Source of the DNA: Tricholoma matsutake | Taxonomy: Eukaryota; Basidiomycota; Agaricomycetes; Agaricales; Tricholomataceae | Assembly: GCA_026075535.2 (NCBI GenBank) | Contig: AP026542.1 | Location: 4,526,001 to 4,590,000, forward strand | DNA length: 64,000 nucleotides | Reading direction: 5' to 3' | Part shown: piece by piece, positions 11,197 to 52,881 of the stretch | How the letters are laid out: the number at the start of each line of letters is the position of its first letter | Position numbering within the stretch: the stretch's first letter is position 1 | Notes under the pieces: model-generated | What the model was told of the DNA's origin: nothing | What the model saw: the letters and a program-made list of their open reading frames with translations, nothing else | Database searches by the model: none | Translations under genes and position numbers: made by a program

Positions 11197-12375
11197 ACTA
11201 CAACAGACCCCTTTCCTCTTAGACACTGGATGACATCCACGCATGGGATTTGAACCTCGCCAAACTCCCTCACACATTGAGACAGTGAATGAGTTCACAG
11301 AATGCATGCAGGATAGCTTGGAGGAGGCAAAGGGAGCCTTAGCAAAGGTGAAGGATGACATGGCACACTTTTACAACCAACATCATTCTCTGACCCCTCA
11401 GTACAAGGTTGGTGATCGAGTTTATCTTGACTCCAGTGACATCTCCGCTATGCGTCCATCCAAGAAACTCACTCATTGCTTCCTGGGACCTTTCCCCATT
11501 GTCAAGTGTGTTGGAATGCATGCCTATTGTCTACACCTCTCAGCCTCCATGGCCAGACTCCACCCAGTCTTCCATGTCGTCAAACTCCTTCCAGCTCCCC
11601 CAGATCCATTCCTGGGACACCATTCACATCCACCACCACCACCTACAGTGATCGAAGGAGAACCCCAGTACAAAGTCGAGTCAATCTTGGACAGCTGGTT
11701 GCATTGAGGAAAACTCCAGTATTTGGTGCATTGGAAGGGTTATGAGTATGAGGAGAACTCATGGGTCAAAGAGTCCAATGTGAATGCCCCTTGGTTAGTC
11801 AAGGAATTCCACTGACAGCACACTACTGCACCAGATCGCATTTAAGTCACTGACTTTGGTTGTATGCAATTTCAAATGCATCGCAGTGATGCATCTTAGA
11901 GAGGGGGTGATGTAAGGGGACTAGGGGGGACTTGGGGGGGTGCCCTGTATTTTTCTCCTATTTTTTATGTTTGTCCTATATTTTTCCTCACTTCATTTCC
12001 TTCTATTCTTCATTTTCTATGATTTTTCCTTATTTTATTATTAATTTCCCTTTCTATCATGTTTGTGCATGTTGACAGTTTTATATTTAGAGGTGGAGCA
12101 CCCCTTCTGACATCTACCCCTTGGTATGATGTCATTCGGCATATTTGCCCTTTCTAGTCTCGCTTTATTGTTCTAATACACTTCTATTGTCTTTTGCCTT
12201 GAGTTTTCCACATGTTTGCCTCATGTTCTCTAGCCTTTTTAGGTACTTTCTTTATTTTATATAAAAAGAGGTACTAGATACAAAGAAAAACAAGAAAGTC
12301 ATCATCTTCCTCCCAGATTGCAGTGATTTGAGAGTTCAGTTTAGTCCTATTCAGTCCAAAGTTTGGTGTTTTACA
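11197..12375 (+). mobile_element. 5'-truncated Ty3/chromovirus copy: integrase tail, chromodomain, 3' LTR
   Basis: From about 11200 the sequence follows the complete element (its 18130-18840) closely: MGFEPRQTPSHIETVNEFTE, then YKVGDRVYLDSSD, then the chromodomain start. An LTR begins at 11911 (TGTAAGGGGACTAGGGGGG) after the same purine-rich tract. It matches the complete element's LTR to about GATGTCATTCGGC near 12145 and then differs completely. A possible LTR end is TTTTACA near 12375, because it mirrors TGTAA, but this is tentative. The TATA-like TTATATAAAAAG near 12257 would fit a promoter. No 5' LTR is present. The junction with the helicase remnant lies near 11197. Confidence 0.75.
11243..11707 (+). 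pseudogene. Ty3 integrase C-terminus fragment
   Basis: A 154-residue frame corresponds to the integrase tail of the complete element, with HPVFHVVKLLPAPPDPF and PPPPPTVIEGEPQYKVESIL. It stops at a TGA at 11705 where the complete copy reads LRQGKLQYLVHWKGY. The chromodomain continues past this stop (YLVHWKGYEYEENSWVKES). Compared with the complete copy, many CG dinucleotides here are TG or CA. Confidence 0.8.
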
Positions 12376-13133: not shown

Positions 13134-13231
13134 ATGGACAATCTATCAATCACCAATGACCATTTCCAACCATTTGGAACCATAGCAGCTGAACTACTGC
13201 ACAAAATATTGAAGCTATGCCTTGGCGAGTG
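13134..13231 (+). pseudogene. F-box/LRR gene, first piece (F-box start)
   Basis: An ATG at 13134 opens MDNLSITNDHF, followed by the F-box core AAELLHKILKLCLGE, which matches the F-box pattern LPxELLxxIL. The piece is cut at 13231 by the Ty3 element, whose insertion duplicated GAGTG (13227-13231). The reading resumes at 19252 as ECPGAHEDLDSPLRQQWLAL then RSTCWMF, the second half of an F-box (LRSVCRxW). F-box proteins bind Skp1 and choose targets for SCF ubiquitin ligases. Confidence 0.8.
13227..13231. repeat. Target site duplication, left copy (GAGTG)
   Basis: This five-base direct repeat next to the 5' LTR is matched by 19252-19256. It lies within a Gly-Glu-Cys coding stretch of the F-box gene, which reads on in frame after the second copy. 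Confidence 0.9.
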
Positions 13232-13657
13232 TGTAAGGGGACTAGGGGGGTGCCCTGTGTGTTTTTCCTATTTTTTATGTTCGTCCTATATTTTTCCCCA
13301 CCTCATTTCCTTCTATTCTTCATTTTCTATGATTTTTCTGGATTTTATTACTAATTTTCCCTTGCTATCATGTTTGTACATGTTGACACTTTTATATTTA
13401 GAGGTGGAGTACCCCTTCCGACACATACCCCTTGGTATGATGTCATTCGGCGGCCTTGATCCGCCTATCTCTGCCTTTTTCTATTTTTAGGTTATATTTG
13501 ATTTTTGTTGTCTTCACATATACTGGGCATCAGCAAGGGGATCCTTAGAGTTTTCTCTTTGGATTTCCCTTTGCTAGGTGTGTCCCCAATGCCTGTATTA
13601 TGTAGTATAATTTTAACTTTGGATTTCCCTTTGCTGGAGGCTTAGGTTGCCCTTATA
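13232..13657 (+). repeat. 5' LTR
   Basis: 426 bases from TGTAAGGGGACTAGG to TTGCCCTTATA. It differs from the 3' LTR by a few bases and by 11 extra bases around TTAGGTTATATTTGATTTTTG near 13485-13508. Confidence 0.92.
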
Positions 13658-13694
13658 GTAGAAAACTCTCCCCTAAGGCCCGAAAATCGCAAAC

Positions 13695-14930
13695 ATGCTG
13701 CCCAAGATAGGCAGGTACGGACTGGATGATGCTTCCCAAAGCTCCACAGAGTCCCTACACACCGTTCCAGATAATCTCGCCTTTATTATGCCGCCATTTT
13801 TGCCAAACGCGCTCCCTAGCGACATGGACGCATCAGAACGCTTTGACGCGCTTGAAAGCGACGTTTCCGGAATGTGCGTGCAAATCAACTCGCTTAAATC
13901 TACGATTGAAAACTTTGTTAGGACCCTCCAGGCTAACCCTATGACCAATAGTTCCCCCTTTACGACTCCAAGCGCACCCAACAACGACATTTTGCCAAAC
14001 GCGTCCACTAAGGAATGTGCCCAGATCAAACTGTCCCCCCCCGCCGAATTTAATGGTGCATGTACATTCCTTAATTCCTGTGAGTTATACATTAGTCTCC
14101 AGTCGCATCAATTCGTCGATGAGGCTGCAAAAATTTATTGGGCCTTCACATACATGAAATCTGAACGCGCCTATCTCTATGTGGACCGTATCCTACGTCA
14201 AACTAAAAAACTCGGTTCTCTACCTTTCTCCACTTGGGGTGACTTTCGAGCTGAGTTCGTATGCCACTTCTGCCCCCTCAATGAACACCACTGAGCAGTG
14301 ACACGACTTGAGTCATCTGCTTACCACCAGGGACGTCGATCCGTGGATGACTATATCGATGAGTTCAAGGATTTGGTGGACATGGCAGGATATGGGAGTG
14401 GGTTACCAGTGGTGGTGAAGCTCTGATGGGGGCTCAACCGAGAAATTCAGGACCAGATTGCACAGATGTTGGAAGGGCGCCCAGTGGACAATGATATCCT
14501 TGCTTGGTATGAAGCTGCTTCACTCTGTGACAAGAACCGACTCACAAATGCGGCGTTTAATGCTGCATTCCGTGCTCCAACTACCACTCATACACCCTAC
14601 ACCTTCAATCGAAGCCTCCCCCGCCCTAACCCCATTCCTGTTTGTCAAACTCCCACACCAGCTGTCAATGTCCCAGTACCAATGGATGTTGATGCAGCCC
14701 GCAGCCGTGCACGTAAGTTGGATCTCTGCTACCATTGTGGGGAACCTGGACACAGGGCTGGAGCGTGTCCCCATCGTCAGGATATCCGCATGCTCACCCC
14801 CGAGGGATGAGATGAACTCCTGCAAGATTTGTTGGTGCTTGTAGATGTTGAGGAAGTGAAGGATCAAGTTGCAGAGGAGATTAAGTTGGAAGTTGTAGAG
14901 GAGCAGGATTTTCCTATTCGCAGCGAGTGA
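13695..14930 (+). pseudogene. gag: gag of the chromovirus, three in-frame TGA
   Basis: One frame runs from ATG 13695 (MLPKIGRYGLDD) to TGA 14928-14930. A capsid-like helical region with LQSHQFVDEAAKIYWAFTYM is near 14100 and DYIDEFKDLVDMAGY near 14350. The nucleic-acid-binding zinc knuckle CYHCGEPGHRAGAC (CX2CX4HX4C) is near 14730. Three internal TGA codons at 14292, 14424 and 14808 break it; each sits where an arginine is plausible (EHH-x-AVTRL, VVKL-x-WGLNRE, TPEG-x-DELL), so CGA to TGA is the simplest history. The terminal stop overlaps the start of pol in another frame, which suggests ribosomal frameshifting in the active ancestor. Confidence 0.85.
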
Positions 14931-17900
14931 ATTGTATGCCCTCACTGCCTGTCCATAACCGCTTTGAAGTCTTGTCAGTTGAATCCCCGGAGAATGAATC
15001 CATTTCTGTGACTGCTCCCCTCTCTGACCCTTTGAAGTTGGCTAAAGATGTACCTGCTCTCCCCATCTCTCCTTCTACTCCACGTCCCAAAATTAAATCA
15101 TGGGAGCGTAAACTACCATGCAAGTATATTGTGGCATCCACTCCCTCTGCACATTCCTTGAACCTAGCCATCAAACTGCAGACGACCGACACTGGACAGA
15201 TACTCGGTGTCTCTGCACTCCTGGACTCTGGTGCGACTGGTCTCTTCATTGATTCCCATCTGGTACAACAACATCACCCAAATACTCGCTCACTCTCACG
15301 TCTGATACCTGTATATAATGTGGATGGATCCCCAAATGAAGCTGGTGCCATCCGAGAGGTTGCAGACCTGGTTCTCCATTACAAAGATCATAGTGAGCGT
15401 GCCCTTTTTGCTGTCACTCAATTAGGAAAGCAAAAGGTGATTTTGGGATATCCATGGCTTCGAGACCATAACCCAGAGGTCGACTGGCATACTGGGGAGG
15501 TTACCATGAGCCGATGTCCATCCTGCTGTCGGACGTGTTTCACAGAAGCCAGGCAAGAACATTGTGGACAGAAGGCAGTGATACAACATACTCAGAAGTG
15601 TTGTGCTGGACCCCTGCCTATACCTGAAGTGGAATTGGAAGGGGTTCCTGATCTAATGCCGGACTCGGATGATGATGATGAGGACCCAGAGGAAGTGGAG
15701 GAGGGTGATCAGATCTTCTACACTGCGATTCGCTCATCGCATGAGGTGTGTGCCACATCGAACATATCCCAACGCCTCGCCGAGGCCTTCCACAAAAACA
15801 ACGCTGCTAAATCCTCTACTAACTCCTTACTCCCTCATCTCCATGAGTTTGAAGACGTGTTCTCCAAGGAGTCATTCGACTCTCTTCCTGCGCACAAGCC
15901 ATGGGATCACGTGATCAAACTCACCCCTGGTGCAACCCCTTCATCCTGCAAGGTCTATCCTCTCTCTCCAGAAGAACAATGGCAGCTTGACCAGTTCATC
16001 GACGAGCACCTGGCCTCTGGACATATTCGACCATCGAAGTCACCCATGGCCTCTCCCTTTTTCTTTGTCAAGAAGAAGGATGGCTCACTTCGACCGGTTC
16101 AAGACTACAGAAGGCTCAACAACATCACGGTCAAAAATTGCTACCCACTACCCCTCATCTCCGAACTCGTAAACCAGCTCTGTGGAGCCCGATACTTCAC
16201 CAAGCTCGATGTCTGTTGGGGCTATAATAATGTGAGGATAAAGGAGGGAGATGAGTGGAAGGCAGCCTTTCGTACCAACCGTGGTCTTTTTGAACTGCTT
16301 GTCATGTTCTTTGGCCTTACTAATAGCCCTGCCACCTTTCAGACCATGATGAACGACATCTTCCATGACCTCATCCTCGAAGGTGTTGTCTGCATCTATC
16401 TCAATGACATCCTCATCTTCACTCGCATGGTTGAAGAGCACTGTCGCATCACGCACCTCATCCTAGAGCGACTTCAACGGTACAAACTCTACCTTTGTCA
16501 GGACAAATGCGAGTTCGAAAAGACCAAGATCAAGTACCTTGGCCTGATTATCTCAGAGGGTCAAGTGGAGATGGATCCTATCAAGGTAAATGGGGTCACA
16601 GCTTGGCCGACGCCCACGAGAAGGAGGTGCAGTCTTTCCTGGGCTTCATCAATTTCTATCGGTGTTTTATCAAGGATTTCTCACATCATGCACGACCACT
16701 GTTTGACTTGACAGGAAAGGAGGCATGGAGGTGGGATAATGCACAACAGGAGGCATTCGAAAAGCTTAAGGAGATGGTCACTTCCACTCTGATCCTTACC
16801 TTTGCTGACGATTCGTGTCCTTTTCATGTAGAAGCCGACAGTTCTGACTTTGTGACGGGCACCGTGTTGTCTCAGCAGTCTCCAGAGGACCAGAAGTGGC
16901 ATCCTGTTGTGTTCTACTCCAAAAGCCTTAGTGCTGTAGAGTGAAACTATGAGATCCATGACAAGGAGATGTTAGCGATAATGCATGCGCTTGAGGAGTG
17001 GCAACACTTCCTTGAGGGTGCCCAACACAAGGTGGAAATTTGGATGGATCACAAGAATCTCGAGTACTTCATGATGGCCAAGAAATTGAACCATCGTCAA
17101 GCTCGTTGGTCCCTGTATCTATCTAGATTCGACTTCTCCTTGCACCACCATCCGGGTCGCAGCATGGGGAAGACCGATGCCCTATCCTGACGTGCAGACC
17201 ATGGGGATGGCAGCGGTGACAACCAAAACATTGTGCTGTTGCAGCCAGACCTGTTCACCATTTGGGCACTGGAAGGCATCGCACCCCAGGGCAAGGAGCA
17301 GGACATCCTATGTGACATTCGTCGCGCAAACCGTAGCGGTTTACATGAGGATGTTGTTGCCCGAGCTGTTAAAGAACTGAGGAAGGGATCGACCCTTTCC
17401 TTACATGCGGCAGAGTGGGCTGAAAAGAAGGACTTGTTGTATTTCAGGGATCACATCTATGTTCCCAATGACCCAGACCTTCGCCGGCGCATCATATCCC
17501 AACACCATGACTCACAGATTGCTGGCCACCCCAGACGCTGGAAGACCTTGGAGCTCACCTCACAGAACTATTGGTGGCCACAAATGTCACAGCTCATTGG
17601 TCAGTATTGTCACACTTGTGACCTTTGCTTATGCACCAAGGTTCCTCATCACAAGCCTATTGGTGAGCTACACCCTCTTCCTGTTCCAGAGAGTTGTTGG
17701 GATGTCATCAGCGTCGACTTTGTGGTGGAATTGCCAGAGTCAAATGGGTTTGATGCAGTGATGTGCACAGTTGACTCAGTGGGAAAATGCGCTCACTTCA
17801 TTCCCACTCACACCACTGTCAGTGCCCTAGGTGCCGCTCGACTCTACCTCCACCACGTGTGGAAATTACATGGACTTCCTGGTGCCTTCCTCTCGGATCG

Positions 17901-18825
17901 TGGCCCTCAGTTCATGGCAGAGTTCACTCGTGAGCTGTACCGACTCCTGGGGATCAAACTCCTCACTTCAACCGCTTATCATCCACAAACTGATGGCCAG
18001 ACGGAGCGAGTCAACCAGGAACTGGAGCAGTACATCCGCCTCTTTGTCAATGAACGCCAGGACAATTGGGATGATCTCCTTCCTTTGGCTGAGTTCGGAT
18101 ACAACAACCATGTCCATGCTTCCACTCAATGGACCTCTTTCCTCTTAGACACTGGACAACATCCACACATGGGATTTGAACCTCGCCAAACTCCCTCACA
18201 CATCGAGATGGTGAATGAGTTCACAGAACACATGAGGGATAGCTTGGATGAGGCAAGGGCAGCCTTAGCAAAGGCGAAGGACGACATGGTGCGATTTTAC
18301 AACCAACGCCACTCCCCAACCCCTCAGTACAAGGTTGGTGATCAAGTTTATCTTGACTCCAGTGACGTCTCCACTACACGTCCATCCAAGAAACTCGCTC
18401 ATCACTTCTTGGGACCTTTCCCCATTGTCAAGTGCATTGGAATGCATGCCTATCATCTATGCCTCCCAGCCTCCATGTCCAGACTCCATCCCGTCTTCCA
18501 TGTTGTCAAATTGCTTCCAGCTCCCCCAGATCCATTCCCAGGACGCCATTCACACCCACCACCACCACCTACAGTGATCGAGGGAGAACCCCAATACGAA
18601 GTCGAGTCAATCTTGGACAGCCGTTTGCGTCAAGGAAAACTCCAGTATTTGGTACATTGGAAGGGTTATGGGTATGAGGAGAACTCATGGGTTGAAGAGT
18701 CTGATGTAAATGCCCCTCGGTTAATCAAGGAATTCCACCAACGGCACACTGCTGCACCGCATCGCATTCAAGTCATGGACTTTGGTCGTATGCGATTTCA
18801 AATCCATCAGGGTGATGCATCTTAG
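14927..18825 (+). pseudogene. pol: pol of the chromovirus: protease, RT, RNase H, integrase, chromodomain
   Basis: Protease: ALLDSGATGLFID near 15220. Reverse transcriptase: PSKSPMASPFFFVKKKDGSL near 16035, then RPVQDYRRLN and FGLTNSPATFQ. The catalytic box reads YLNDIL (16397-16414) where active enzymes have YxDDxL. A frameshift lies near 16605-16625, just before KEVQSFLGFINFYR. RNase H continues through TGA 16942 ([14 protein letters not shown]) and ends near TGA 17188 (DALS-x-RADHG). The integrase part, 17233-18825, is unbroken. It has the zinc-binding region QHHDSQIAGHP with CHTCDLC, the catalytic residues in VISVDFVVELP, SDRGPQF and HPQTDGQTERVNQ, and a chromodomain (LQYLVHWKGYGYEENSWVEE) near 18640. 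Chromodomains bind modified histones and steer integration. Confidence 0.92.
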
Positions 18826-18836
18826 AGAGGGGGTGA
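18824..18836 (+). promoter_or_regulatory. Polypurine tract
   Basis: AGAGAGGGGGTGA lies directly before the 3' LTR, where plus-strand DNA priming takes place in LTR retrotransposons. The same tract precedes the LTR of the truncated copy at 11911. Confidence 0.75.
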
Positions 18837-19251
18837 TGTAAGGGGACTAGGGGGGTGCCCTGTGTGTTTTTCCTATTTTTTATGTTCATCCTATATTTTT
18901 CCCCACCTCATTTCCTTCTATTCTTCATTTTCTATGATTTTTCTGGATTTTATTACTAATTTTCCCTTGCTATCATGTTTGTACATGTTGACACTTTTAT
19001 ATTTAGAGGCGGAGTACCCCTTCCGACACATACCCCTTGGTATGATGTCATTCGGCAGCCTTGATCCGCCTATCTCTGCCTTTTTCTATTTTTAGGTTTT
19101 GTTGTCTTCACATATACTGGGCATCAGCAAGGGGATCCTTAGAGTTTTCTCTTTGGATTTCTCTTTGCTAGGTGTGTCCCCAATGCCTGTATTATGTAGT
19201 ATAATTTTAACTTCAGATTTCCCTTTGCTAGAGGCTTAGGTTGCCCTTATA
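18837..19251 (+). repeat. 3' LTR
   Basis: 415 bases, same ends as the 5' LTR, followed by the GAGTG duplication. It is shorter than the 5' LTR by 11 bases. Confidence 0.92.
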
Positions 19252-20356
19252 GAGTGCCCTGGGGCACATGAGGACTTAGACTCACCTCTTCGACAGCAGT
19301 GGCTGGCGCTTAGATCCACATGCTGGATGTTTTTGCACTCAAAGTGCAGCTGAACCCTTTTCAATGAGTCATCATCTATTTTGATGGTGAGCAACGTGCT
19401 CACAGCAAGACCTTCAACAATTCACTATGAACATTATTGAGGTGGTCACCCCATGTCGACAACATACTTTTCAGGACCCCATTTCCCATATTCATTATTC
19501 TCGACTTTAAACAGTCCTTCAATACCTCACTGGTGCAAATAACAACCATATTTAAAAAGCTTTTTGTTGATTGCATTGTCCTCAACCTGGACACCTTCAA
19601 ACTACAGCTCACTTCCCCCTACATCCATACATTCACCATACCACCACTGCCCAACCTTTGTTGATGCCACCTTACACTTGAACTTTTAGTCCAGTCAGTC
19701 TCTAGCAGAGTCCACCTCTGCACAAGATCAAACATGGAGATCGAGACACAGCTCATTTTCCATGCACCCAAGCTGCAGCATCTTAGCATAAAGTTGAACA
19801 ATACATGGGCAATTTGTCTATGTACCTCTGAGGCACTATCCAGCATCTCCCTCGACTTCACCCAAATTGGTTGTTTCCATAGCCAATTAAGAACAACCCT
19901 TCACAATGTTCTGTACAGCAGGACCCCACTCCTCCAAAAGCTCCCTGCAATGCTTCAAGAATTAACTCTCCTTCATCTTTGCATCTGATCTGCATGGCTT
20001 GAGAATGTAGGGCAACTGGAGATGCAGTACTTGTGACTTTCTACCTCACCACAATCAGGGACCATATGCCAGTTGACTCACGACAGCAGCTCAAGCTTCT
20101 CACTCCACATCTTGATACAGCTCGTCTACACATAACCAACACCCGCCTCATTTCTTTCAATGAATCTATTTTCCTGTCTACATTAAGGCATCTCTGTGTT
20201 TCTACCCCATGCATTACAGCCTTCTGGCCCTAAGTGTCAACCTATCAAGCTCATTGGAATTTTGTGATCAATTACCCCTGTCTGGAAGAAGCGATCATTG
20301 TGGTTCATGGACTAGACCCAAACCCATTCCAGTCAATTGGCCCTCATTAACACAAC
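19252..20356 (+). pseudogene. F-box/LRR gene, middle piece
   Basis: It begins with the second GAGTG copy and reads ECPGAHEDLDSPLRQQWLAL then RSTCWMF, completing the F-box. Leucine-rich segments follow in shifting frames: KLQHLSIKLNNTWAI near 19775, SSISLDFTQIGC near 19840, LLQKLPAMLQELTLLHLCI near 19935, and STLRHLCVSTP near 20180. The last segment, VNWPSLTQ, ends at the hAT-like insertion. Frame changes and stops (first at 19370) show decay. The LRR pattern fits the large family of mushroom F-box proteins that bind varied targets. Confidence 0.7.
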
Positions 20357-21912
20357 TAGTGTTTGAAAGTCCAGTGCATAGGACCAAAAAAGACCGTGGA
20401 CCCAACCGAACTGGACTGATGGCAACTGGACTTTTGGTTGCGGTTGCCCAAGGTCTGGTGATTACCCGGTTGCCAGTCTGGCACAATCAAATATATTAAT
20501 AGACTGCTCAAAAACCCACCGCAACCGACTGCAACCGGTCTTTTGTTGCTAAGGTAATTGATCAATCAATCACATGTAATGCATTACTGATCAACATGCA
20601 TGATGATGACAACACCAACAACAACAATGGCCACCACCTCCTTTACTCCTCACCACCACCACTCCTCTCTACAAACGGCTACATCGACAACCGCCATGCC
20701 CCTTCAACCACCCCAAACAGCAACACCATGGCTGCAAATGTGCCACATCATGCATGTTCTATGCATTTGTTTACTTTGGAGAAGGTGTTGTTTCATTTTT
20801 TCATTATTCTCTTTACTACTAACATCTTTGTTTGCTTCTTTTGTAGGTTTAAACTTAACTTATGTGAATGTAACGTCCCCACCATTCCAGCCTCATGAGC
20901 TGCTGCTCGTGGGGTGGATATTCAGTGACAATGGACAACTGGGCTGGCCAACAAACAGAGATGACAATGACATGGCACTAACATCCAGCCTAATGAGCCA
21001 CTGCTTGCGGGGTGGATTGTTGGTGCTATTCTTTAACGACAACAAGAGACACAATAGAAGCACCCATACCTTATGAACTGCCACATCACCACTACTGAGA
21101 ACAGGAAGCAGGTGCAAAGCGCTGATGATGATGACAATGAATGGACAATGCCAGCAACCCAGCACCATGAGAGGATGACCCCAGCACCACAACAAGAGGA
21201 CGACCCTAGCACCCACATCTGCCACTCCGAGCCACTGCTCGCAGGGTGGATGGGGGGTGCTAATGGTTTCCAACAGCCGCAGGGGGACAAATGATGACAA
21301 CAGGAGGATGAACATCGACATCACGGGGAACAATGACCATAGGGAGCAAACAATGCCGACAGGGGACGCTGAACAGCAACAACAGGAGGACGACAGACAA
21401 CACCACAACGGCGAGGCAACCACTAACCACCATGACAGTGGGGGACAACAAATGACAACTAAGGGGGAGGGGACGATGAACAACGATGGGCGGGGCAGGG
21501 ATGATGAACAATGATGAGCAGGGGATGATGAACAATGATGATGAACAATGATGGGCAGGGGATAATGAATGACGATGGGCAGGGGATGATCGATGATGAA
21601 CAAGGAGTTGCCAGCCCCAGCCTGCTCACAGCCTCTGCTTTGTGAGGGGCTTTCTTTTTTCTTGTTATTTTATTTGTAGAAATTATTACTACGTATTATG
21701 CATACTAGACCAGTTGCAAACTGGTTTGGAGTCGGTTCTGTGCAGAACTGACCTCAACCAGTCCAGCAACTGGTTACACAACCATGCCAGACTGGTTTAC
21801 ACCAGTCCAGTCCATGGTTGTGTGGAACTTGAGAATGAATGCAACCAGTCCGGTCCACAGTTGCCCCTGTTGGGGTCAAAAAAACCGGACCGGACCAGAC
21901 TTTTAAACACTA
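20357..21912. mobile_element. Non-autonomous hAT-like transposon, 1,556 bp, 8 bp duplication
   Basis: The ends read TAGTGTTTGAAAGTC and, inverted, TAGTGTTTAAAAGTC. The eight bases AACACAAC occur immediately before (20349-20356) and immediately after (21913-21920). An 8 bp duplication and TAGTG-type termini are hallmarks of hAT elements. The subterminal zones carry many copies of AACTGG/CCAGT in both directions, as expected for transposase-binding repeats. No transposase is encoded; the inside is low-complexity and partly ATGATG/GGGGATGATGAACAATG repeats near 21480-21600. Mobilisation would need a hAT transposase from elsewhere. Confidence 0.9.
21475..21605. repeat. Imperfect tandem repeat (GATGATGAACAATGATGGGC unit)
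   Basis: Units such as GATGAACAATGATG and GATGGGCAGGGGAT recur with small changes inside the hAT-like element. The reverse strand gives a long open frame of low complexity (20893-21603), which I regard as a by-product of this composition. Confidence 0.7.
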
Positions 21913-22366
21913 AACACAACTCACAATTTTTCCTGAACCAGGGATCACCAAACTTCTTTCCTGTATCAGGATGCCAGTGTTAGAGCAAATCTGTATTGTC
22001 TACCTGGGGTGGTGTACAAGAAAGATGCAGAAGAGGATCAAAGAGGAGGAACAGAAACAGGAGGGTGAGGAGGAAGAGACTAGTGGTGAAACTAGTGACC
22101 GCGAACCCCAGGGCTTCACCAGCACTCTTGACATGGCTGCCAATGTGTTTGCACTAGGTTTGCACCAGGTTGATGGGCATGCCACTACCAATGAAGATGA
22201 ATTGGGTTCGGAAGAGGTGGTCATAATAGGACAGGAGCTCACCAAATGCTATCATGTGGAAAGGTGGAAGATTATGCAACAGTTTGCTGGTGTGCTGGTG
22301 ACGTGTGCAAAGAGCTATGTATTACCAGACAGGAACTATTTTGATAGCACACCCAACTTTCTTTAG
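21913..22366 (+). pseudogene. F-box/LRR gene, last piece (C-terminus)
   Basis: Starting at the second AACACAAC copy, the frame continues the interrupted sentence: upstream VNWPSLTQ, then downstream LTIFPEPGITKLLSCIRM and PVLEQICIVYLG. It goes on through a charged stretch rich in Glu/Lys (EEEQKQEGEEEE) to TYHVERWK-like sequence (KCYHVERWKIMQQF) and a stop at 22366. That the two sides join in one frame once one duplication is discounted shows the hAT-like element came in after the coding sequence was established. No stop breaks this last piece. Confidence 0.75.
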
Positions 22367-22629: not shown

Positions 22630-23741
22630 CTTGTTCTATAAATAGAACTTGGAACTGCAAAAATGGACTAATTGTTTCTGACCATGACAAACTCTTCATG
22701 TCCAAATTCTGGACTGCACTTCACAAACTGACTGGCATCAAATTAAAGATGTCCTCCATGTACCACCCACAAATGGATGGTGCAAGTGAAAGAACAAATA
22801 AGACCATAAATCAGGCTCTTCAATATCATGTGGCATAGAATCAGAGAGGCTGGGCATGGGTGCTCCCACATGTGTGTTTTGACCTGATGAATACTGTGAA
22901 CAAATCAACTGGTTTCTCCCCATTCCAACTCTGACTGGGTCAAAGTCCTCACCTGATTCCCCCCTTAATTGCACCAATTGTAACAACACCCCCAGAAGAA
23001 CAACATGTGAGGGAACTCATTGACAGATTGCAACAAGATGTCTTTGATGCACAGGATAGCCCTCTGAAGGCTAAGGTGACTCAAGCTGCTTATGCCAACC
23101 TCACCCATGGTGACAACCTTGAACTCAACATCAGGGATCACATCATGTTGTCCACCTAGAACAGGCGACAACAATATGCAGTTAAAGGTGAAAAGTGAGT
23201 TGCTAAATTTATACCCAGGTTCAATGGGCCTTATTTCATCACAGACATTAACCATGAGGTGTCCATGGTAACTCTTGACCTGCTGCCCTCCTCAAATGTA
23301 TATCCTACATTCCACACTGGAGAAGTGGTGCCCTTCAATGAAAATGACTGGTTGCTTTTCCCTTCCTGTGAACTGGCATGCCCAGCGCTATTGTCACTGA
23401 AGATGGTGTGCAAGAATACTATGTGGAGAAGATCATCAATGTGTGAAAACATGGACATGGCATGCAATTGCCAATACCTCATTCAATGGCTAGAGTATGG
23501 ACCCAAAGAAGATGAGTGGCTTCCTGGATCAGAACTTGCAGACAATAAAGTGTTGTATGACTGGTTGGCAGGAAGACAGTGAGGGCATCATGTCCAGTTT
23601 GCTTTCATCACATCTCTGCTGCTGGTAGCTTTTTCCTCAGGGGTTTTTGACACACTCAATGAGCAGTTTTTACATTACACTTACTTACATTCCTCTTTTC
23701 TCTGTTGTTTCACTGAGGTTGCAGAATTTTTCAGAGGGGGG
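22630..23741 (+). pseudogene. Ty3 integrase/chromodomain fragment, different subfamily
   Basis: The reading starts in the integrase core at [20 protein letters not shown] (active copies have SDRDxxF), then [20 protein letters not shown] (usual HPQTDG). It goes on through LIDRLQQDVFDAQDSPLKAK to PRFNGPYFITDINHE. A chromodomain follows in two frames: PIVTEDGVQEYYVEKIIN near 23380 and YLIQWLEYGPKEDEWLPGSE near 23475. Several stops and a frameshift make it inactive. It is clearly different in sequence from the complete element at 13-19 kb. The 5' part of the element is absent. Confidence 0.8.
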
Positions 23742-26104: not shown

Positions 26105-28147
26105 ATGGGTAGGAGAAAAATAGAGATACAGCCTATAACTGTAAGTCTCGTTCATGTCATCCGTTATCCACATGATATTGCCGTCCTTTGTTTTCATTAC
26201 CCGCTTCATTTACCTTTTGTGCAAGAATCAGACTAACCTGACTCGTTTGATTCATATAGCATGAACGCAATCGTTCGGTTACCTTCCAAAAGGTACCATC
26301 TCCCTGTGCTATTTACATGTTATATGAGGCTATTTTTGACACTGTCTTGGCATTTTCGCTCTTTTTTTACCCGCCTGTCGTCTTCTAGCGCAAGAATGGT
26401 CTCTTCAAGAAAGCCTATGAGCTTGGTGTCCTCTGCTCGGTCGATGTGGCTGTCATCCTTTTCGGTTCGAGTTCATTTCGTCCCAGACCTCGTGCTCTCC
26501 CCAGCTAATATTGTTCTATTTTTATCGCCTTTCATCATCGTGCAGAACAACGTCCAGGACATTCGCCGAAGTTGTACCAGTATGGCTCATCCAACATCCA
26601 CGATATCGTCCAGCGCCAGTTGCGTGTACGTGCCATGTACTCATCCTCCCGTGTCTCATCCTGATTTCGTATAGCACGATGGTGAAGTCGACACTCGAGG
26701 CCCTGGAGAGTTTATGGGGGGCGCTGCGGGCGGGAAGAACGATGATGATGATGATGGAGATGAAGGAGAGGGCGATGGAGACGGTGAGGACGATGGGGAA
26801 GATGTAGGACCACCTCCGACTAAGGTTTCCACTCGTTCCAAGCGAAGAGGTGATGGACAACTCAAGCCCATTGCCAGTGGAATGATGCAGGCAGACGTAA
26901 GTCGCTGTCATATTTATGTTACCCTCAATCCTAATCATTTCTTTCAACCCTAGCTGGACTACCGAATGTCATCCGTCCCCTCGCACATGCCCCTTGGCCC
27001 ACCGCAACCCCATCTGCCTCCTGCACCACACTCAACGTTCGGTCTCTCTGCCTCCATGCACCACCACCACCAGCGGCAACAACATCCTATCTCAAGCGAC
27101 CGGCTTCGCCCTATGGACCAATATCAGGACAGTCAACAGCAGAGCAAGCGCCCGCGCCTTGATGTCTTGACCGTACCCCAGCAGCAACAACATCACCAGC
27201 ACTATGGCAATCGAGGAGGATCCCAGCCATCTCCATCTGTGTCTAGCCCTGTCAATCCGGGCAGAGGTGGGGAGTACGGTTACCACCCCTCACCTTCACA
27301 GTTCCAAGGACCGCCGTCCTCTCACCAATACCCGCCTCAATATGCTTTCTCACCTGGTGGTCCGCTCTCTTCCCATTCTCATCCATACCCTGTCAGTTCA
27401 CCTGGCCCGCCACCATCCTTTATATCCCTCAACCCTCAGCCTCAAGCAGAGTACTCATTCCCACCGCCCCCGCCTCCTGGTTCTGTTCTGCCGTCCTCTT
27501 CCTCTGCTGTAGGCAGATCCGGGTCAAGGAGGGATTCCAGTGCCTCGTACCCCACTACAAGGCCAGGTGGAGGGGCCTATGGGAACGAAAATGGAAACCA
27601 AAACGCTAACGGGATGTATGTTCCCACCCCGGGATCTGGATCAGGGCAAGGTGGAGGCGCAGATCCGAGCCAACAAAATACAGGTGAACTACTTGCCGAC
27701 ATTTTCAGTACTTCATCTGCTGTCCGCGGACGCGGAGCCGACCAAATGGATTGGCCTGTGCATGGACAATCTTCGTCGGGTGGCGGTAGGGTTGAGAGTG
27801 GAGAAGTTACTCCTGCATCCGCTCACGAAGAAGATCCACCTGTCGGGAATAACCCCAATACACCTGGAGTTTGGCTGGACTTCTTATCGACACCTGCCGC
27901 CGGAGTTTCGTCGCCTACGTCAGCGAATGACAACGGAAATGTTTCTCATCCAAACGTAATATCCTCGGCGTCGACACCTGCTGCACAAGCACAGACTCCA
28001 GTCGTAGAAGACAACGCTGGTGAAGCTAGTGCTTCGACTACTGGTCCGGGACTTAGGCTCTATGGGATGGAGCCTGGAGACCGTGAAAATGCAGCCCCCC
28101 CCGATGCAGAAGAAATAGAGGAGCAACAGGAATCAGGGGATGACTAA
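26105..28147 (+). CDS. MADS-box transcription factor, MEF2/Rlm1 type
   Basis: Six exons can be read: 26105-26140, 26260-26292, 26389-26464, 26546-26625, 26675-26896, 26954-28147, all with GT-AG introns. They give the MADS domain [47 protein letters not shown], followed by the MEF2-type extension with [19 protein letters not shown]. The [11 protein letters not shown] start and the second region place it in the SRF/MEF2 type II group, nearest yeast Rlm1/Smp1. In yeast, Rlm1 responds to cell-wall stress through the Slt2 MAP kinase. After the DNA-binding part come an acidic Asp/Glu/Gly run (near 26740-26810) and a ~390-residue Pro/Ser/Gln/His-rich tail, probably a transcription-activating region. 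There are several SP/TP sites, possible MAP kinase targets. Confidence 0.93.
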
Positions 28148-30116: not shown

Positions 30117-32848
30117 GAACTGTGCGATACCGAAGGAGCAACATTCAACCTACAAATAACCGACCAGCAAGTAGTCAACCTACAAGCAATCTATCGGTCA
30201 GCGATCTCTCAGCAAGCTTATGCCTCCCACATGTTAGTGCTTCGTTGTCAGCAATCTATGGCACATAGTGATACATTGAATATAAAGCCCTGTTCCATGC
30301 ATTTCCAGCTTACCAGCAGAGTTCCTCAAACCAATGGAGTACGAATCCAGATGGTACTGCGATGGACGAAGATATGCCCTTGTTTTCCGGGGACGACATG
30401 GAAACATCAACATTTAACATCTCTGGATATGCCGTAGCACGTCCTACGGCTCTGGTTTGTGACCCACAGATTGCGCTGCCTGTGACCTCGGTATCGACAC
30501 CGGATGCTCAGTCCTTCAGGACGTCTCCTTTTCAAGAGTCAGATGCAACTGCTATGCAAGAGGATACATGGCCACTGCAAATAGCTAACAATAACGTCGT
30601 TTTACCGGCAGCTGGATATGCATTGTCATCCATCGGACAAGTGTTATCCGCGGGATCTTGCGCTACAGGTCAAACCCTGACTAACCCTCCAGGTCAACTA
30701 TCTGCAAATGGTTTGGCCACCACACTACAAGTTTCGGTCCAGCCCCAAATAATAACTGCGGATGCTGGATCGGACATCGGAACACCAGGAGAAGAAGTAG
30801 CGAGTGATGATGGCGCACCGGCTTCGCCATCACGACCGACCGTCCTGAGGAAGTCTGTAAAAGCTCTGACTAGGCACTGTAGGTCTAGCCCAAATCGGAG
30901 ACCAACCTCATTGATGCCTCTACCTGCCGATTTGGAAGCTCTTAAACATACACTGGATGATGATCTAGGTCGGGACTATTGGATGGCGGAGCTTGGGCGC
31001 ATACCATTCGATGGTGTCTTGACACCGCTGCAAACCATACCTAGAGGATCTGTACCAGACGATTCAATCTTAATGCAAACATTGCCGAAAGTCCCACTGT
31101 CTGTGGTCTATTCCCCTGATCCAGCCAAATCTGATCAGTCAGTTGCTTTACCTGCCAGAGATTTCAATGTGCATGTCGATCGTGATGCTGCCAAGCAGAC
31201 GTCAACGCCTCCTGCAATAAGTTCGGTTCTCCCGTCCTGCTCTTTATATACCGAAGCAAAGATCGGTATCAAATCAAATCAATCAGTCAGAGGTGTGGCT
31301 TGTAACGGGAATCCAACGCCACATGAATCAGACTTGCCGAACCAGTGTCCTCCGACAACATTGCAGGCAAGCGCTGAGTTAACTTTTCCATCAGCGAATT
31401 CCACTGCTGTCCCTGTAAGTACTACTACCAGACCGACACGCAAGGAGAGCCCAGCCATCATACCACCGTACGGCCTGATGTCCCGAAACACGGTATCGTC
31501 GTCTAATCAGGCAGGTTATAATAATCCGCGTTCCCCAATAAATGGATCCTCTGGCGCAGGCGAAAGCAAGACCTTGACAAGTCCAATGCTGTCTACCATT
31601 GATCTAATTGATCTAACTTCAGAGACACAACTACCATCCAGGAGAGCATCTGAATCTCAGAAGTTGCGAAATAAATTTGAACCGGCCCCGTTACTCAAGC
31701 AAGTCACTGTCCTCCGCAGAGAAGCGACGAAAATGCCCTGGACGCCCTCCGAGTCCCTGAAGCAAGTAACTGCAAAAGAGAGCAGCCTAGTAGATGTCGA
31801 CCTCGATTCATGCCTAATATCTACACCCTGGTCGTCGCATGCCCTCCTGTCACCACTGGATGATTTAAATACGATACCTCGACCGTTGAGTCTGCCGAAA
31901 TTTGTCAAGGACATTTCCCTTTCCCCGATGCCTGCTAAGCAATACCCTGATCCGATTCCGAACGTGGCATCCACGGTTCCGAGTGACTCAAGACAAAAGA
32001 AGCGCTCTACGTCTCTTGGCGCTGGTCACGAACAGGAATCTACTGATAATCCTCCACCAAACGTGCTAGGGTTGTCTCCGCAATTGAAATGTGGGAAGCT
32101 TCGCTCAGCGTTGGACTTGACGGTGACTTGGGAAATACAAGGATCGACAGCTCCGTGGTACGTGCGGCGGACGGAGCAACTCACAAGGGAGGTCAGTAAG
32201 GGCATAGAGAATTGTTACCACGTCACGATGGAATTGATTCAGGTATGAGAATATCAAGTGTAGAACAGCAAGGCTGACTCATTACCTGTAGCGCTTCAAG
32301 CAGTCGTTGCTGAAATTAGACTTGCTTATTTTCCAGCACGATGCGCTGTGTGACGTCTTACGCGAACTGCACAGAACTGCGGAGGAGACACATAAATGTC
32401 GTGGCGGCTGTAGGGTTTGGCACAAGAACCATAATAAACAACTGAAAAAGCTTAAAGAGTACGTTTTCCTAAAAGAAAGATCTGCATTGCACTCATCTAA
32501 TTTTTCTAGTCGCGTCGACATGTATACTGTACTCATTACATCTCCAATCAGCCCGAGCAAACGTGTGCAGAAAACGTCTCATTTTCTGTACAAGCTCAGG
32601 CAATGGGTAGAAACACTCCAGGTACGCAAGTTTTCGCTCGTGTGGCACCTTTAACGATATTTTCTCAGACATCCTTGCGTACATCGGTAGAACCATCCGA
32701 AGCTGTGAAGCCCAAACCACGCGGAGAGAGTGATGAAAGCTGCGACTCTATGCGAAGGTCGAATCAGAAGCAATTCGACAGGCAACATCCAACATGCTTT
32801 CTGGTCGCAAAAGAGCCCGATACCTTGAAATCGTACTTTGTTGTATAA
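30117..32848 (+). CDS. Unknown disordered protein; 5' end unresolved
   Basis: An acceptor CTCTATAG before 30117 opens ELCDTEGATFNLQITDQQVV and AIYRSAISQQAYASHM. An intron at 30269-30309 joins this to TYQQSSSNQWSTNPDGTAMD and a long exon to about 32242. Further introns lie at about 32243-32291, 32459-32508 and 32622-32668, and the frame stops at 32848. The first exon and start codon are not identified. The long middle part is Ser/Pro/Thr-rich and looks disordered, with one acidic DDDLGRDYWMAEL patch. The C-terminal part (TWEIQGSTAPWYVRR, ELIQRFKQSLLKLDLLIFQ, CRGGCRVWHKNH) looks folded, helical and better conserved. I do not recognise the family. The starting Met at 30362 is only the first ATG of the long exon. 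Confidence 0.6.
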
Positions 32849-50074: not shown

Positions 50075-52881
50075 TCAAACATAGGAAAGGGAGGACACAC
50101 TTGATGCAGCCTTTGAATGAGTCCTACTTCTGGGTGTAGGTGAAGCAACACTTTTTGGTCTTGCCACATTAGACGTACTGTCATTGGCCGCAGTACTAAT
50201 ATTGGTCGGTTTAAAAGCAATAGCAGGGTCTACATACTTCGACGCATCATACTTGCCGTATGATCCCGCAGAGCGTAACGAATTGGTCGACGACGCGTGG
50301 GTCAGCCTACCATTGCCGTTCGTAGGAGGAAGCGGGAGGTTTGTCACCGAACCGGGCGTCAATCTCACGTCAGAAGATGACATACGTGGGTTTGCCGCGC
50401 TTTGTTCCCCCGAGGGAACAGGCTGGTCTGGGGCTAATGGTTGTGACATGCGGGAAGGAGATCTCGGCAACCAATCATTGGAGGTAGAGTATGACGGAGG
50501 TAATTGATTATTCGGGCGTGAGTCACCCTGTGCGGTGCGAACGGACCTGATGCTAGAGGCATATCTATGTGTCTGAGGATGATTGGTGGGATCTCGCACA
50601 GTGGATGCATCAGCTGGTGGGTGGCCAATTGACGAAAATGAAGGGGCTGAGCGAATGGTCTGTGAAGGAAGTGATTCGTGGGCATGATGTGGACTGAGAT
50701 AACCATTCGCTTGACGGGACGAAGACGGAGTCACGACGGGATCGGTAGGGGTAGGCGTGACCGACTGCAAAGGAGAAAGATAGAAAGATTACCAAGAACA
50801 ATGTGATTGTAGGACGTGCTTACCGGCGACTGAACAGTTATCCCTATCCCAGGACTAATCTCGGGCTCGTCACCGTTGACTACGTGAAGACTGGACTTAG
50901 TCGTACGACGCGAACGAGCAGGACTGGGGGGTCCTGTATTGTCCCACATAGTATGTTGTCGAGAAGCCTCTGGCATCCTAGTATCCCGTGCGAGGGGTTC
51001 TGGCACAGTAAGCTTCGCAGGACGCCGGATGTAGGTAGGCGGCCGTCTCGGTGCAGAGGTTATACTCTTCAAAGGCAAACCCTAGTCAGCTGGAATCAAT
51101 CAACATACACTAGACGGGAACAAACCGTTGTCCTCGGGTTGCTGGTACTGGACTGCCTCCACCCATCCGGGTCTGAGTAGGAATTGCGTGCATCTGATGC
51201 ATCTACGCTCCTGTTCTGCCTGTGTTCAGGGTGTTCCCTAACGAGAGTAGCCCCTCGATTCATCGGGTCCTCGCTAATGACATGGAGGTCCTGCTTGAAC
51301 CTCCGTCCAGGTCCCCCATTCGATTTTCTGGCTCGTCCAGAGGTGCTTCCGTTAGGTGTGCTAAGAATGTCAAAGTTGGACACTCGGGTCGAGACCGACC
51401 CTGAATCGATGGACGAACGGCGCATCGCTTCAGTAGAATCACGGACGTTATACCATGATCGTGAGTTTTGTGAGACGTCCATAGGAGGCCTTGCTGATGC
51501 GCCGTTAGGTGCTTCCTGTTTGCTTTTACGTCCGAAGGTTTTGCGGCGCAGCATTGTGTACCATGATTCTTTCCGCTTCCTATTAGAACCTGCTCCTGGC
51601 CGTAGCACGTCTGGTGGAAGAGCGCCGGAGGCAGCATGGGGATCGGATATTCCGAGATGTTCATTAGCCGTCACCCAAGGTTGAGTTGACTGGCGCAGGG
51701 ATTCATTTCGCCCGAATTGCTGCTCGAGCTCGGCCGTTGGTGGTATGTGGACAGTAAAAACGTCAAATGGTGGGATGGATGGTGAGTATGTGCTTGGATT
51801 TTTCGGAGTTGACTGTACGACTGGTGCCACTGTCTCAGGAGGCTCAGGAGGGGGAGGGGATGGAGGGTGCATTTCCGGTGGGGGCTGTTGAGCCGGGGGG
51901 GCAGGGGCGGTGACAACAACACGGATAACTTCAGGGGAACCTGTTTCTGCTAGCCCACGGAGGGGTGGACGCAAAGGAGAGAATATGGGGTTAAACAGAT
52001 CACCATTGTCATGGACAGCTTCCCTTGTGCCATCCGCATCCGGTTGCTGGACTTCGTAAGCATGCTCAACTGGCGGATATGCCCGCTCATTTCTCTCTGT
52101 TCTCCTTCGTCCTGATTTAGGATTACGCCCCTGATTAGACTGCTCCATGGCGAAGTCGTGTTCTTCACGCGCGCGGCTGAATCCAGCATCAAAGCCATAT
52201 TTTCTACCTTCTTCCCTCGCAGCAGCAACTAGTCGTTCTTGATACAGTCGATGAGCCTTATCTCTTGCTCGTGCGGCAGACAATTCCGCATCATCTCTTT
52301 GAGTCTGAACCACCCTCAGCACTTCCTGAGCCCGTATGATCTCTGTTTGAGCCGTCTGCAGTTGGATTTGATATAGCCGAAGCTCTTGAGAGGCTTTTAG
52401 TGCATCACGTTGCGCTGCCAGCCTGTGGTCATTCAGAAGCTTGAAACGGGCGGCTACGTCGTCGTTTACGCGCTCCATTTCTGCTGCTCTTTGAGACTCT
52501 GCGGCTATTCTCTCTGCAGCAGTAAGAAGCGCTCTTCGCAGTCTCCGACTCTCACGCTCTTTGTCATGGAAGAGCGTTAAAAGTTCATCGGGGGAGGCCT
52601 CTGAGGGCGCTAGCTCACGATCTGACCTATGGCGTCTTCGGCGACTGACGTCGTGTCTCTCCGTGGTGGGGATCTTGTCTCGTCGATGAGAGGTCTGTGA
52701 AAGGAGTTCCGATCGTGGTGAATATGCTCTTCGCTCTTGAGCAATACTTTCGTCTACGAAGTCACGAAGAATTGACCTGCGGTGAGAAAATATGAGCGTC
52801 TAAGTCCACAAGGTTGAATAATAACGGTTAAGCGAACCCTTCTGTTTCATCAGAGTCCGGTGAATGTATTGGCGCTGGCAT
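50075..52881 (-). CDS. Unknown protein: coiled coil and long disordered tail
   Basis: ATG 52881 opens MPAPIHSPDSDETEG; a short intron leads to SILRDFVDESIAQERRAYSP. A helical region with many Arg/Glu/Gln follows: TLFHDKERESRRLRRALLTA, AAQRDALKASQELRLYQIQL, EIIRAQEVLRVVQTQRDDAE, likely a coiled coil over ~120 residues. After FGRKSKQEAPNG the sequence is Pro/Ser-rich and disordered, through introns near 51100 and 50770, to SVSSLSYV and a stop at 50075. I do not recognise the family. A coiled coil followed by a basic, Ser-rich tail is common in cytoskeletal or polarity proteins, which is only an inference. Confidence 0.65.

What the first reader, a model, noticed from the sequence alone, without database searches (positions are those of the whole stretch)
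13134..22366. One F-box/LRR gene split by two unrelated transposons, both with readable duplications
The F-box half at 13134-13231 continues in frame at 19252 after the Ty3 element (duplication GAGTG). Further on, the LRR part stops at 20356 and continues in frame at 21913 after the hAT-like element (duplication AACACAAC). This gives a dated layering of two insertion types in one gene, and suggests a second, intact homologue may exist in the genome.
Basis: partly seen in the sequence, partly recalled or inferred. Interest (0 to 1): 0.75.

Follow-up and report, generated by a model that had tools for sequence, protein, structure and literature searches.

The report
Mushroom pseudogene split by two transposons
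In the matsutake mushroom, a dead copy of a large, poorly known gene family carries two different jumping-gene insertions, each with its target-site duplication still readable; this is ordinary genome decay, and the order of the two insertions cannot be told from the sequence.

Summary
The window is Tricholoma matsutake ch05:4,526,001-4,590,000. A 6,020-bp chromodomain Ty3/gypsy element (13232-19251; LTRs 426/415 bp; most probably the known marY1) sits between two GAGTG copies; a 1,556-bp non-autonomous hAT-type element (20357-21912) between two AACACAAC copies. Short joined flanks read through both sites and match uninterrupted relatives beyond 300 random joins per site (32.3 bits against at most 26.9; 66.6 against at most 28.9). 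So the pieces were one gene, of a dispersed family (62 middle-piece hits, own included). Join 2 is strong (24 of 29 paralogues); join 1 is thinner (2 of 29).

Corrections: the gene also carries three frame changes and five in-frame stops, so it is a decayed pseudogene. 'F-box' has no Pfam support; 'LRR' has weak support. 'Dated layering' is not supported: the insertions are side by side and their estimated ages overlap. No near-identical or empty-site copy was found in this genome.

Side finding: stops in the family are mostly TGA, and five close copies differ mainly at CpG, fitting published CpG hypermutation in this genome.

The parts
13134..13231 (+). Gene piece 1: N-terminal start, motif AELLHKILKLCLGE, up to and including the left GAGTG
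   Evidence: Alone it matches L006 (13 aa, 69%, E 8e-5) and L042 (14 aa, 57%, E 0.007) in the expected frame; the other references L061, L021, L020 give no such match with piece 1 alone, and L004_487 lacks this part
13227..13231 (.). Left copy of target-site duplication GAGTG
13232..19251 (+). Ty3/gypsy chromodomain retrotransposon, 6020 bp, most probably marY1; coding region split into several ORFs
   Evidence: RVT_1, RNase H, Integrase_H2C2 and Chromo Pfam hits in separate ORFs; 426-bp LTR and about 6-kb length as published for marY1
13232..13657 (+). 5' LTR, 426 bp
   Evidence: 7 transitions, 0 transversions, one 11-bp gap against the 3' LTR; 41 genome matches listed: itself, 39 at 98-99% and one at 88%, with 40 of 2517 first-look candidates scored
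18837..19251 (+). 3' LTR, 415 bp
19252..19256 (.). Right copy of GAGTG
19257..20356 (+). Gene piece 2: middle part, matching paralogues in successive frames (19270-19332, 19353-20018, 20078-20314) with five in-frame stops, then a further frame up to site 2
   Evidence: L061 residues 44-64, 73-279 and 300-391 in order, E 1e-25; stops and frames
20349..20356 (.). Left copy of target-site duplication AACACAAC
20357..21912 (.). hAT-type DNA transposon, 1556 bp, non-autonomous (no transposase seen)
   Evidence: Inverted ends TAGTGTTT; three other copies of the family carry exact 8-bp duplications; no Pfam hit in its longest ORF, 258 aa
21913..21920 (.). Right copy of AACACAAC
21921..22366 (+). Gene piece 3: C-terminal part ending PDRNYFDSTPNFL and a stop
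   Evidence: Matches L018 (40%, E 1e-22) and 34 further places besides its own; third codon positions differ most from L018 (62, 55, 98 differences by position in 149 codons)

Best explanation
A member of a large, dispersed Tricholoma gene family (LRR-like by weak evidence, F-box only by motif) was interrupted by two independent transposition events. A marY1-type Ty3 retrotransposon integrated with a 5-bp staggered cut, and a non-autonomous hAT-type element integrated with an 8-bp staggered cut, presumably moved by a transposase supplied from elsewhere. Shown: element ends, duplications, co-linearity of the three gene pieces with uninterrupted relatives, additional frame changes and stops. Inferred: loss of function, the transposase supplied in trans, and CpG-biased mutation as a contributor to decay. 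Not determined: whether the gene died before, between or after the insertions, and which insertion came first.
For: Exact duplications at exact element ends. Both joins match relatives above random-join controls. L061 matches in order over residues 18 to 521 of its 535. P0001, a 418-aa database protein of unnamed origin, matches join 1 ungapped over 39 aa (36%, single-comparison E 3e-7). Exact 8-bp duplications at three other hAT-family copies. marY1-size LTR and element, Pfam pol domains and chromodomain. Third-position excess against L018 points to a coding past.
Against: Join 1 rests on short, weakly conserved sequence: 2 of 29 paralogue genes match across it at E up to 0.5, and the real score (32.3 bits) is only moderately above the best of 300 controls (26.9). 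P0001 ends just after join 2 and supports it only weakly there (22 aa, E 0.19). No relative closer than 40% over piece 3 and no empty-site allele could be examined. Some frame changes in piece 2 could in principle be introns, although the L021, L042 and L061 genes read through the matching region in single ORFs.
Confidence: 0.9

Rival explanations
1. The gene was already dead from stops and frame changes before either element landed; the insertions are later passengers in neutral sequence. (A variant of the best explanation: it concerns timing only.)
For: CpG observed/expected is 0.17-0.22 in the gene pieces, 0.40 in the hAT element and 0.57 in the Ty3 interior, against 0.82 and 0.99 in two stop-free paralogue ORFs of L042. 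The LTR pair is only 1.7% diverged.
Against: Stop-free paralogue ORFs can also be CpG-poor (L021 0.36; L061 0.53), and three other copies of the hAT family have similar CpG values (0.29, 0.45, 0.40), so CpG level is not a clean clock. Across 15 family segments CpG level and stop number were not correlated (rho -0.24, p 0.38).
Confidence: 0.5
2. The insertions themselves killed a working gene, and the stops and frame changes followed. (Also a variant of the best explanation.)
For: Piece 3 is still open over 150 codons, with third-position excess against L018. The hAT terminal branch is short (about 0.017).
Against: The middle piece carries three frame changes and five stops while the LTR pair is young; this needs fast decay. 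Not resolvable here.
Confidence: 0.35
3. The three pieces are unrelated fragments brought together by chance and never formed one gene.
For: Pfam finds no named domain in any piece scanned.
Against: Order, spacing and frame match single ORFs elsewhere in the genome, and both joins outscore all 300 random joins each.
Confidence: 0.02

Closest known systems
marY1 (Ty3/gypsy LTR retrotransposon of Tricholoma matsutake, AB028236)
   Same: LTR length 426 bp, element about 6 kb (published 6047 bp), dispersed high copy number, same species (PMC10211490 and PMC10627285, passages seen)
   Different: This copy is 6020 bp with a 415-bp 3' LTR and a split coding region; identity to AB028236 itself was not computed
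hAT superfamily DNA transposons (non-autonomous)
   Same: 8-bp target duplication and TAGTG-type inverted ends in four copies, window included; hAT dimerisation domains are common in the genome (151 matches with 150 of 449 candidates scored)
   Different: No transposase seen in this copy; no transposase-bearing element with the same ends was identified
F-box/LRR proteins
   Same: Short N-terminal motif followed by a leucine-rich region; the low-confidence model of homologue P0001 gives mostly LRR proteins among the 50 rows shown, including the F-box proteins MAX2 and TIR1, aligned from model residue 76 on
   Different: No Pfam F-box hit in any piece or relative scanned
Published CpG hypermutation in T. 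matsutake repeats (PMC6980582; abstract and passages seen)
   Same: C-to-T changes biased to CpG
   Different: Here seen in a gene family rather than in annotated repeat families

Membership tests
marY1 / Ty3-gypsy | LTRs of about 426 bp flanking a roughly 6-kb element | tested here: met
   426 and 415 bp; 6020 bp; published 426 and 6047 bp
marY1 / Ty3-gypsy | Reverse transcriptase, RNase H, integrase, chromodomain in that order | tested here: met
   RVT_1, RT_RNaseH_2, Integrase_H2C2, Chromo in successive ORFs; the rve integrase-core hit (23 bits) is below its cut-off of 32.6
marY1 / Ty3-gypsy | 5-bp target duplication | tested here: met
   GAGTG on both sides; that 5 bp is typical is recalled, not from a call
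marY1 / Ty3-gypsy | Sequence identity to the type element AB028236 | not tested
   The type sequence was not fetched; the original paper PMC92199 is not held
hAT | 8-bp target duplication | tested here: met
   Window copy and L044, L047, L050 exact; the other 13 of the 16 loci L044-L059 gave no such pair by this pattern search, which needs both ends inside the fetched stretch
hAT | Terminal inverted repeats of hAT type | tested here: met
   TAGTGTTTGAAAGTCC / TAGTGTTTAAAAGTCT, like ends in three further copies; that such ends are hAT-type is recalled, not from a call
hAT | hAT transposase in the element or in an autonomous partner with the same ends | tested here: inconclusive
   No Pfam hit in this copy's longest ORF; hAT domains abound in the genome but those loci could not be cut out and read
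F-box | F-box domain recognised by profile | tested here: inconclusive
   No Pfam F-box hit (E up to 1; up to 10); the N-terminal part of the P0001 model has low confidence
F-box | Skp1 binding | not testable with these tools
   Needs a binding assay
LRR | Leucine-rich repeats by profile or fold | tested here: inconclusive

The most novel reading that the evidence does not exclude
A large lineage-restricted LRR-like gene family of matsutake, unrecognised by Pfam, is being eroded as collateral damage of a CpG-directed repeat defence: duplicated copies gain TGA stops at former CpG sites and then collect transposons, so the family records a continuing birth and death driven by the silencing of repeats.
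Probability: 0.3. Interest if true: 0.45.

Novelty: new member of a known kind. Interest (0 to 1): 0.2.

Why it matters
As a locus it is one more transposon-broken pseudogene in a genome whose published repeat share is 71.6%. It could serve as an insertion marker, since haplotype-phased contigs of two samples are described, and as an entry point to an unnamed gene family, some of whose copies show CpG-biased decay.

Tried and rejected
Dated layering: tested by LTR divergence and by a tree of 13 hAT copies over 186 bp (window plus 12 of 16 fetched loci; L044, L046, L049 and L059 dropped because their match did not cover the stretch); estimates overlap, so rejected as undecidable. CpG level as a clock: rejected, because other hAT copies and stop-free paralogues vary and it did not track stop number. 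TGA as a reassigned codon: considered and thought unlikely, since the stops in L008, L009 and L010 align with CGA codons of the stop-free copy (6 of 6, two per copy, in three copies of one close group) and stop-free relatives exist. Close intact sister copy: not found by DNA search of piece 2 (one match, itself; that search skips common words) nor by a site-2 flank pattern with two mismatches (one match, itself). Protein database: the first search gave nothing from 5310 candidates; a profile search gave five proteins from the 7995 candidates scored. PDB by sequence profile: three weak matches, best E 0.17, not informative. Pfam on relatives also gave a few unrelated weak hits, best E 0.13 and 0.21, set aside. 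Literature: no paper in the held library has 'Tricholoma matsutake', 'F-box' and 'gene family' together; some searches gave listings of no direct use; led to the papers cited, of which I saw abstracts or passages only; PMC6384867 (passages) added nothing.

Second paralogue L019: its right part is abutted by a marY1-like 3' LTR (85% to the window's), but no left gene part was found in the 13.1 kb read, so it is not claimed as a split gene.

Full report
Source. The genome has 13 contigs and 161,040,721 bases. This total and the lengths of contigs C7 to C13 equal the table rows seen of the telomere-to-telomere Tricholoma matsutake assembly (PMC10211490, passages seen; contig lengths). The window is ch05:4,526,001-4,590,000. 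The fungus is an edible ectomycorrhizal mushroom.

First insertion. A 6,020-bp element lies at 13232-19251. Its LTRs are 426 and 415 bp and differ by 7 transitions, no transversion and one 11-bp gap over 415 aligned positions (K2P 0.017). Read by hand from that alignment, three of the seven differences have a CpG in one LTR and two more form one TG/CA pair, as expected if one CpG decayed differently in the two copies. Separate ORFs carry reverse transcriptase, RNase H, integrase zinc-binding and chromodomain hits. LTR length, element length and copy number fit marY1 (426 bp, 6047 bp; 683 elements and 3,240 LTRs published). The LTR search listed 41 matches: itself, 39 at 98-99% and one at 88%, with only 40 of 2,517 first-look candidates scored. 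GAGTG lies on both sides.

Second insertion. A 1,556-bp element at 20357-21912 has TAGTGTTT inverted ends and AACACAAC on both sides. Among 16 fetched loci with related sequence, three (L044, L047, L050) have the same ends and exact 8-bp duplications; 13 gave none by that pattern search. Its longest ORF has no Pfam hit. It is filed as hAT-type and non-autonomous; a transposase-bearing partner was not identified, though hAT domains are common in the genome.

The gene. The flanks of both sites join without a stop. The joined peptide at site 1 matches L006 (41 aa, 41%, E 5e-5) and L004 (E 0.009), which is 2 of 29 paralogue genes at E up to 0.5; against a set of six references fetched or chosen later it also matches L061 (47 columns, 40%, E 2e-5) and L020 (E 0.009), L042 only in part (E 0.024) and L021 poorly (E 0.31). 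The peptide at site 2 matches 24 of the 29 genes across the point. In 300 random joins per site the best crossing score was 26.9 (site 1) and 28.9 bits (site 2), against 32.3 and 66.6. L061 matches in order: residues 18-64 at the joined site 1, 73-279 and 300-391 in piece 2, 405-521 in piece 3. An outside homologue, P0001 (source ENA, organism not named by the call), matches site 1 without a gap over 39 aa and ends just past site 2, where support is weak (E 0.19).

State of the gene. The matches to relatives change frame three times (1 to 3, 3 to 2, 2 to 1) within piece 2, and the matched stretches hold four TGA stops and one TAA. Stop-free ORFs of 564, 567 and 554 codons exist in L021, L042 and L061, so introns are an unlikely cause of these frame changes. 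The locus is a pseudogene. Piece 3 keeps an open frame, and its differences from L018 by codon position (62, 55, 98 in 149 codons) point to a coding past.

Family. The middle piece hits 62 places and the C-terminal piece 36, own included, at E up to 0.01 (lower bounds by the tool's own note). Of the 61 other middle-piece hits, 33 have no stop in the matched stretch and 28 have at least one; the stops are 40 TGA, 5 TAG and 1 TAA (hand tally). Within one group of close copies, compared with the stop-free L004 gene, 55 of 64 base differences in L005 are CpG transitions, and 56 of 80, 61 of 86 and 58 of 84 in L008, L009 and L010; all six TGA stops in the latter three align with CGA. CpG-biased C-to-T hypermutation has been reported for this genome's repeats, with its mechanism left open (PMC6980582, abstract and passages). 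Against a simple reading, CpG level did not correlate with stop number in 15 segments.

Order of events. The elements lie about 1.1 kb apart and are not nested. The window hAT copy has a terminal branch of about 0.017 over 186 bp in a 13-copy tree, roughly three changes; each LTR carries about 0.009. These overlap, the hAT branch is an upper bound on insertion age, and CpG mutation distorts both. No order is claimed.

Verdict. The dating and the firm F-box label are not supported. The locus is ordinary; the CpG-eroded gene family is the part worth a further look. Confidence in the best explanation was lowered from 0.92 to 0.90 after the recount showed how few paralogues cross join 1.

Noticed in passing
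61 paralogue places, e.g. L004, L005, L008, L009, L010: Stops in this gene family are mostly TGA (40 of 46, hand tally), and one group of close copies differs mainly by CpG transitions; a gene family seems subject to the CpG hypermutation reported for repeats.
   Followed up: partly
L019 / L041:6285: A second paralogue, 88% identical in DNA to L018, is abutted directly by a marY1-like 3' LTR (85% to the window's); its left gene part was not found within the 13.1 kb read.
   Followed up: partly
window 11201-12187: Another, diverged Ty3 3' end and LTR (88% and 61% ungapped identity to the element studied) lies just upstream of gene piece 1.
   Followed up: no
window 22680-23400: Sequence that reads by eye like a degraded gypsy integrase fragment follows the gene's end.
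   Followed up: no
G000:C7:1193, C5:2076 and 5754, C6:81185, C11:78029: Several family members lie within about 85 kb of contig ends, suggesting subtelomeric spread.
   Followed up: no
window 30362-32248, 26966-28147, 51096-52478: Long ORFs (628, 393, 460 aa) without any Pfam hit at E up to 0.01.
   Followed up: no
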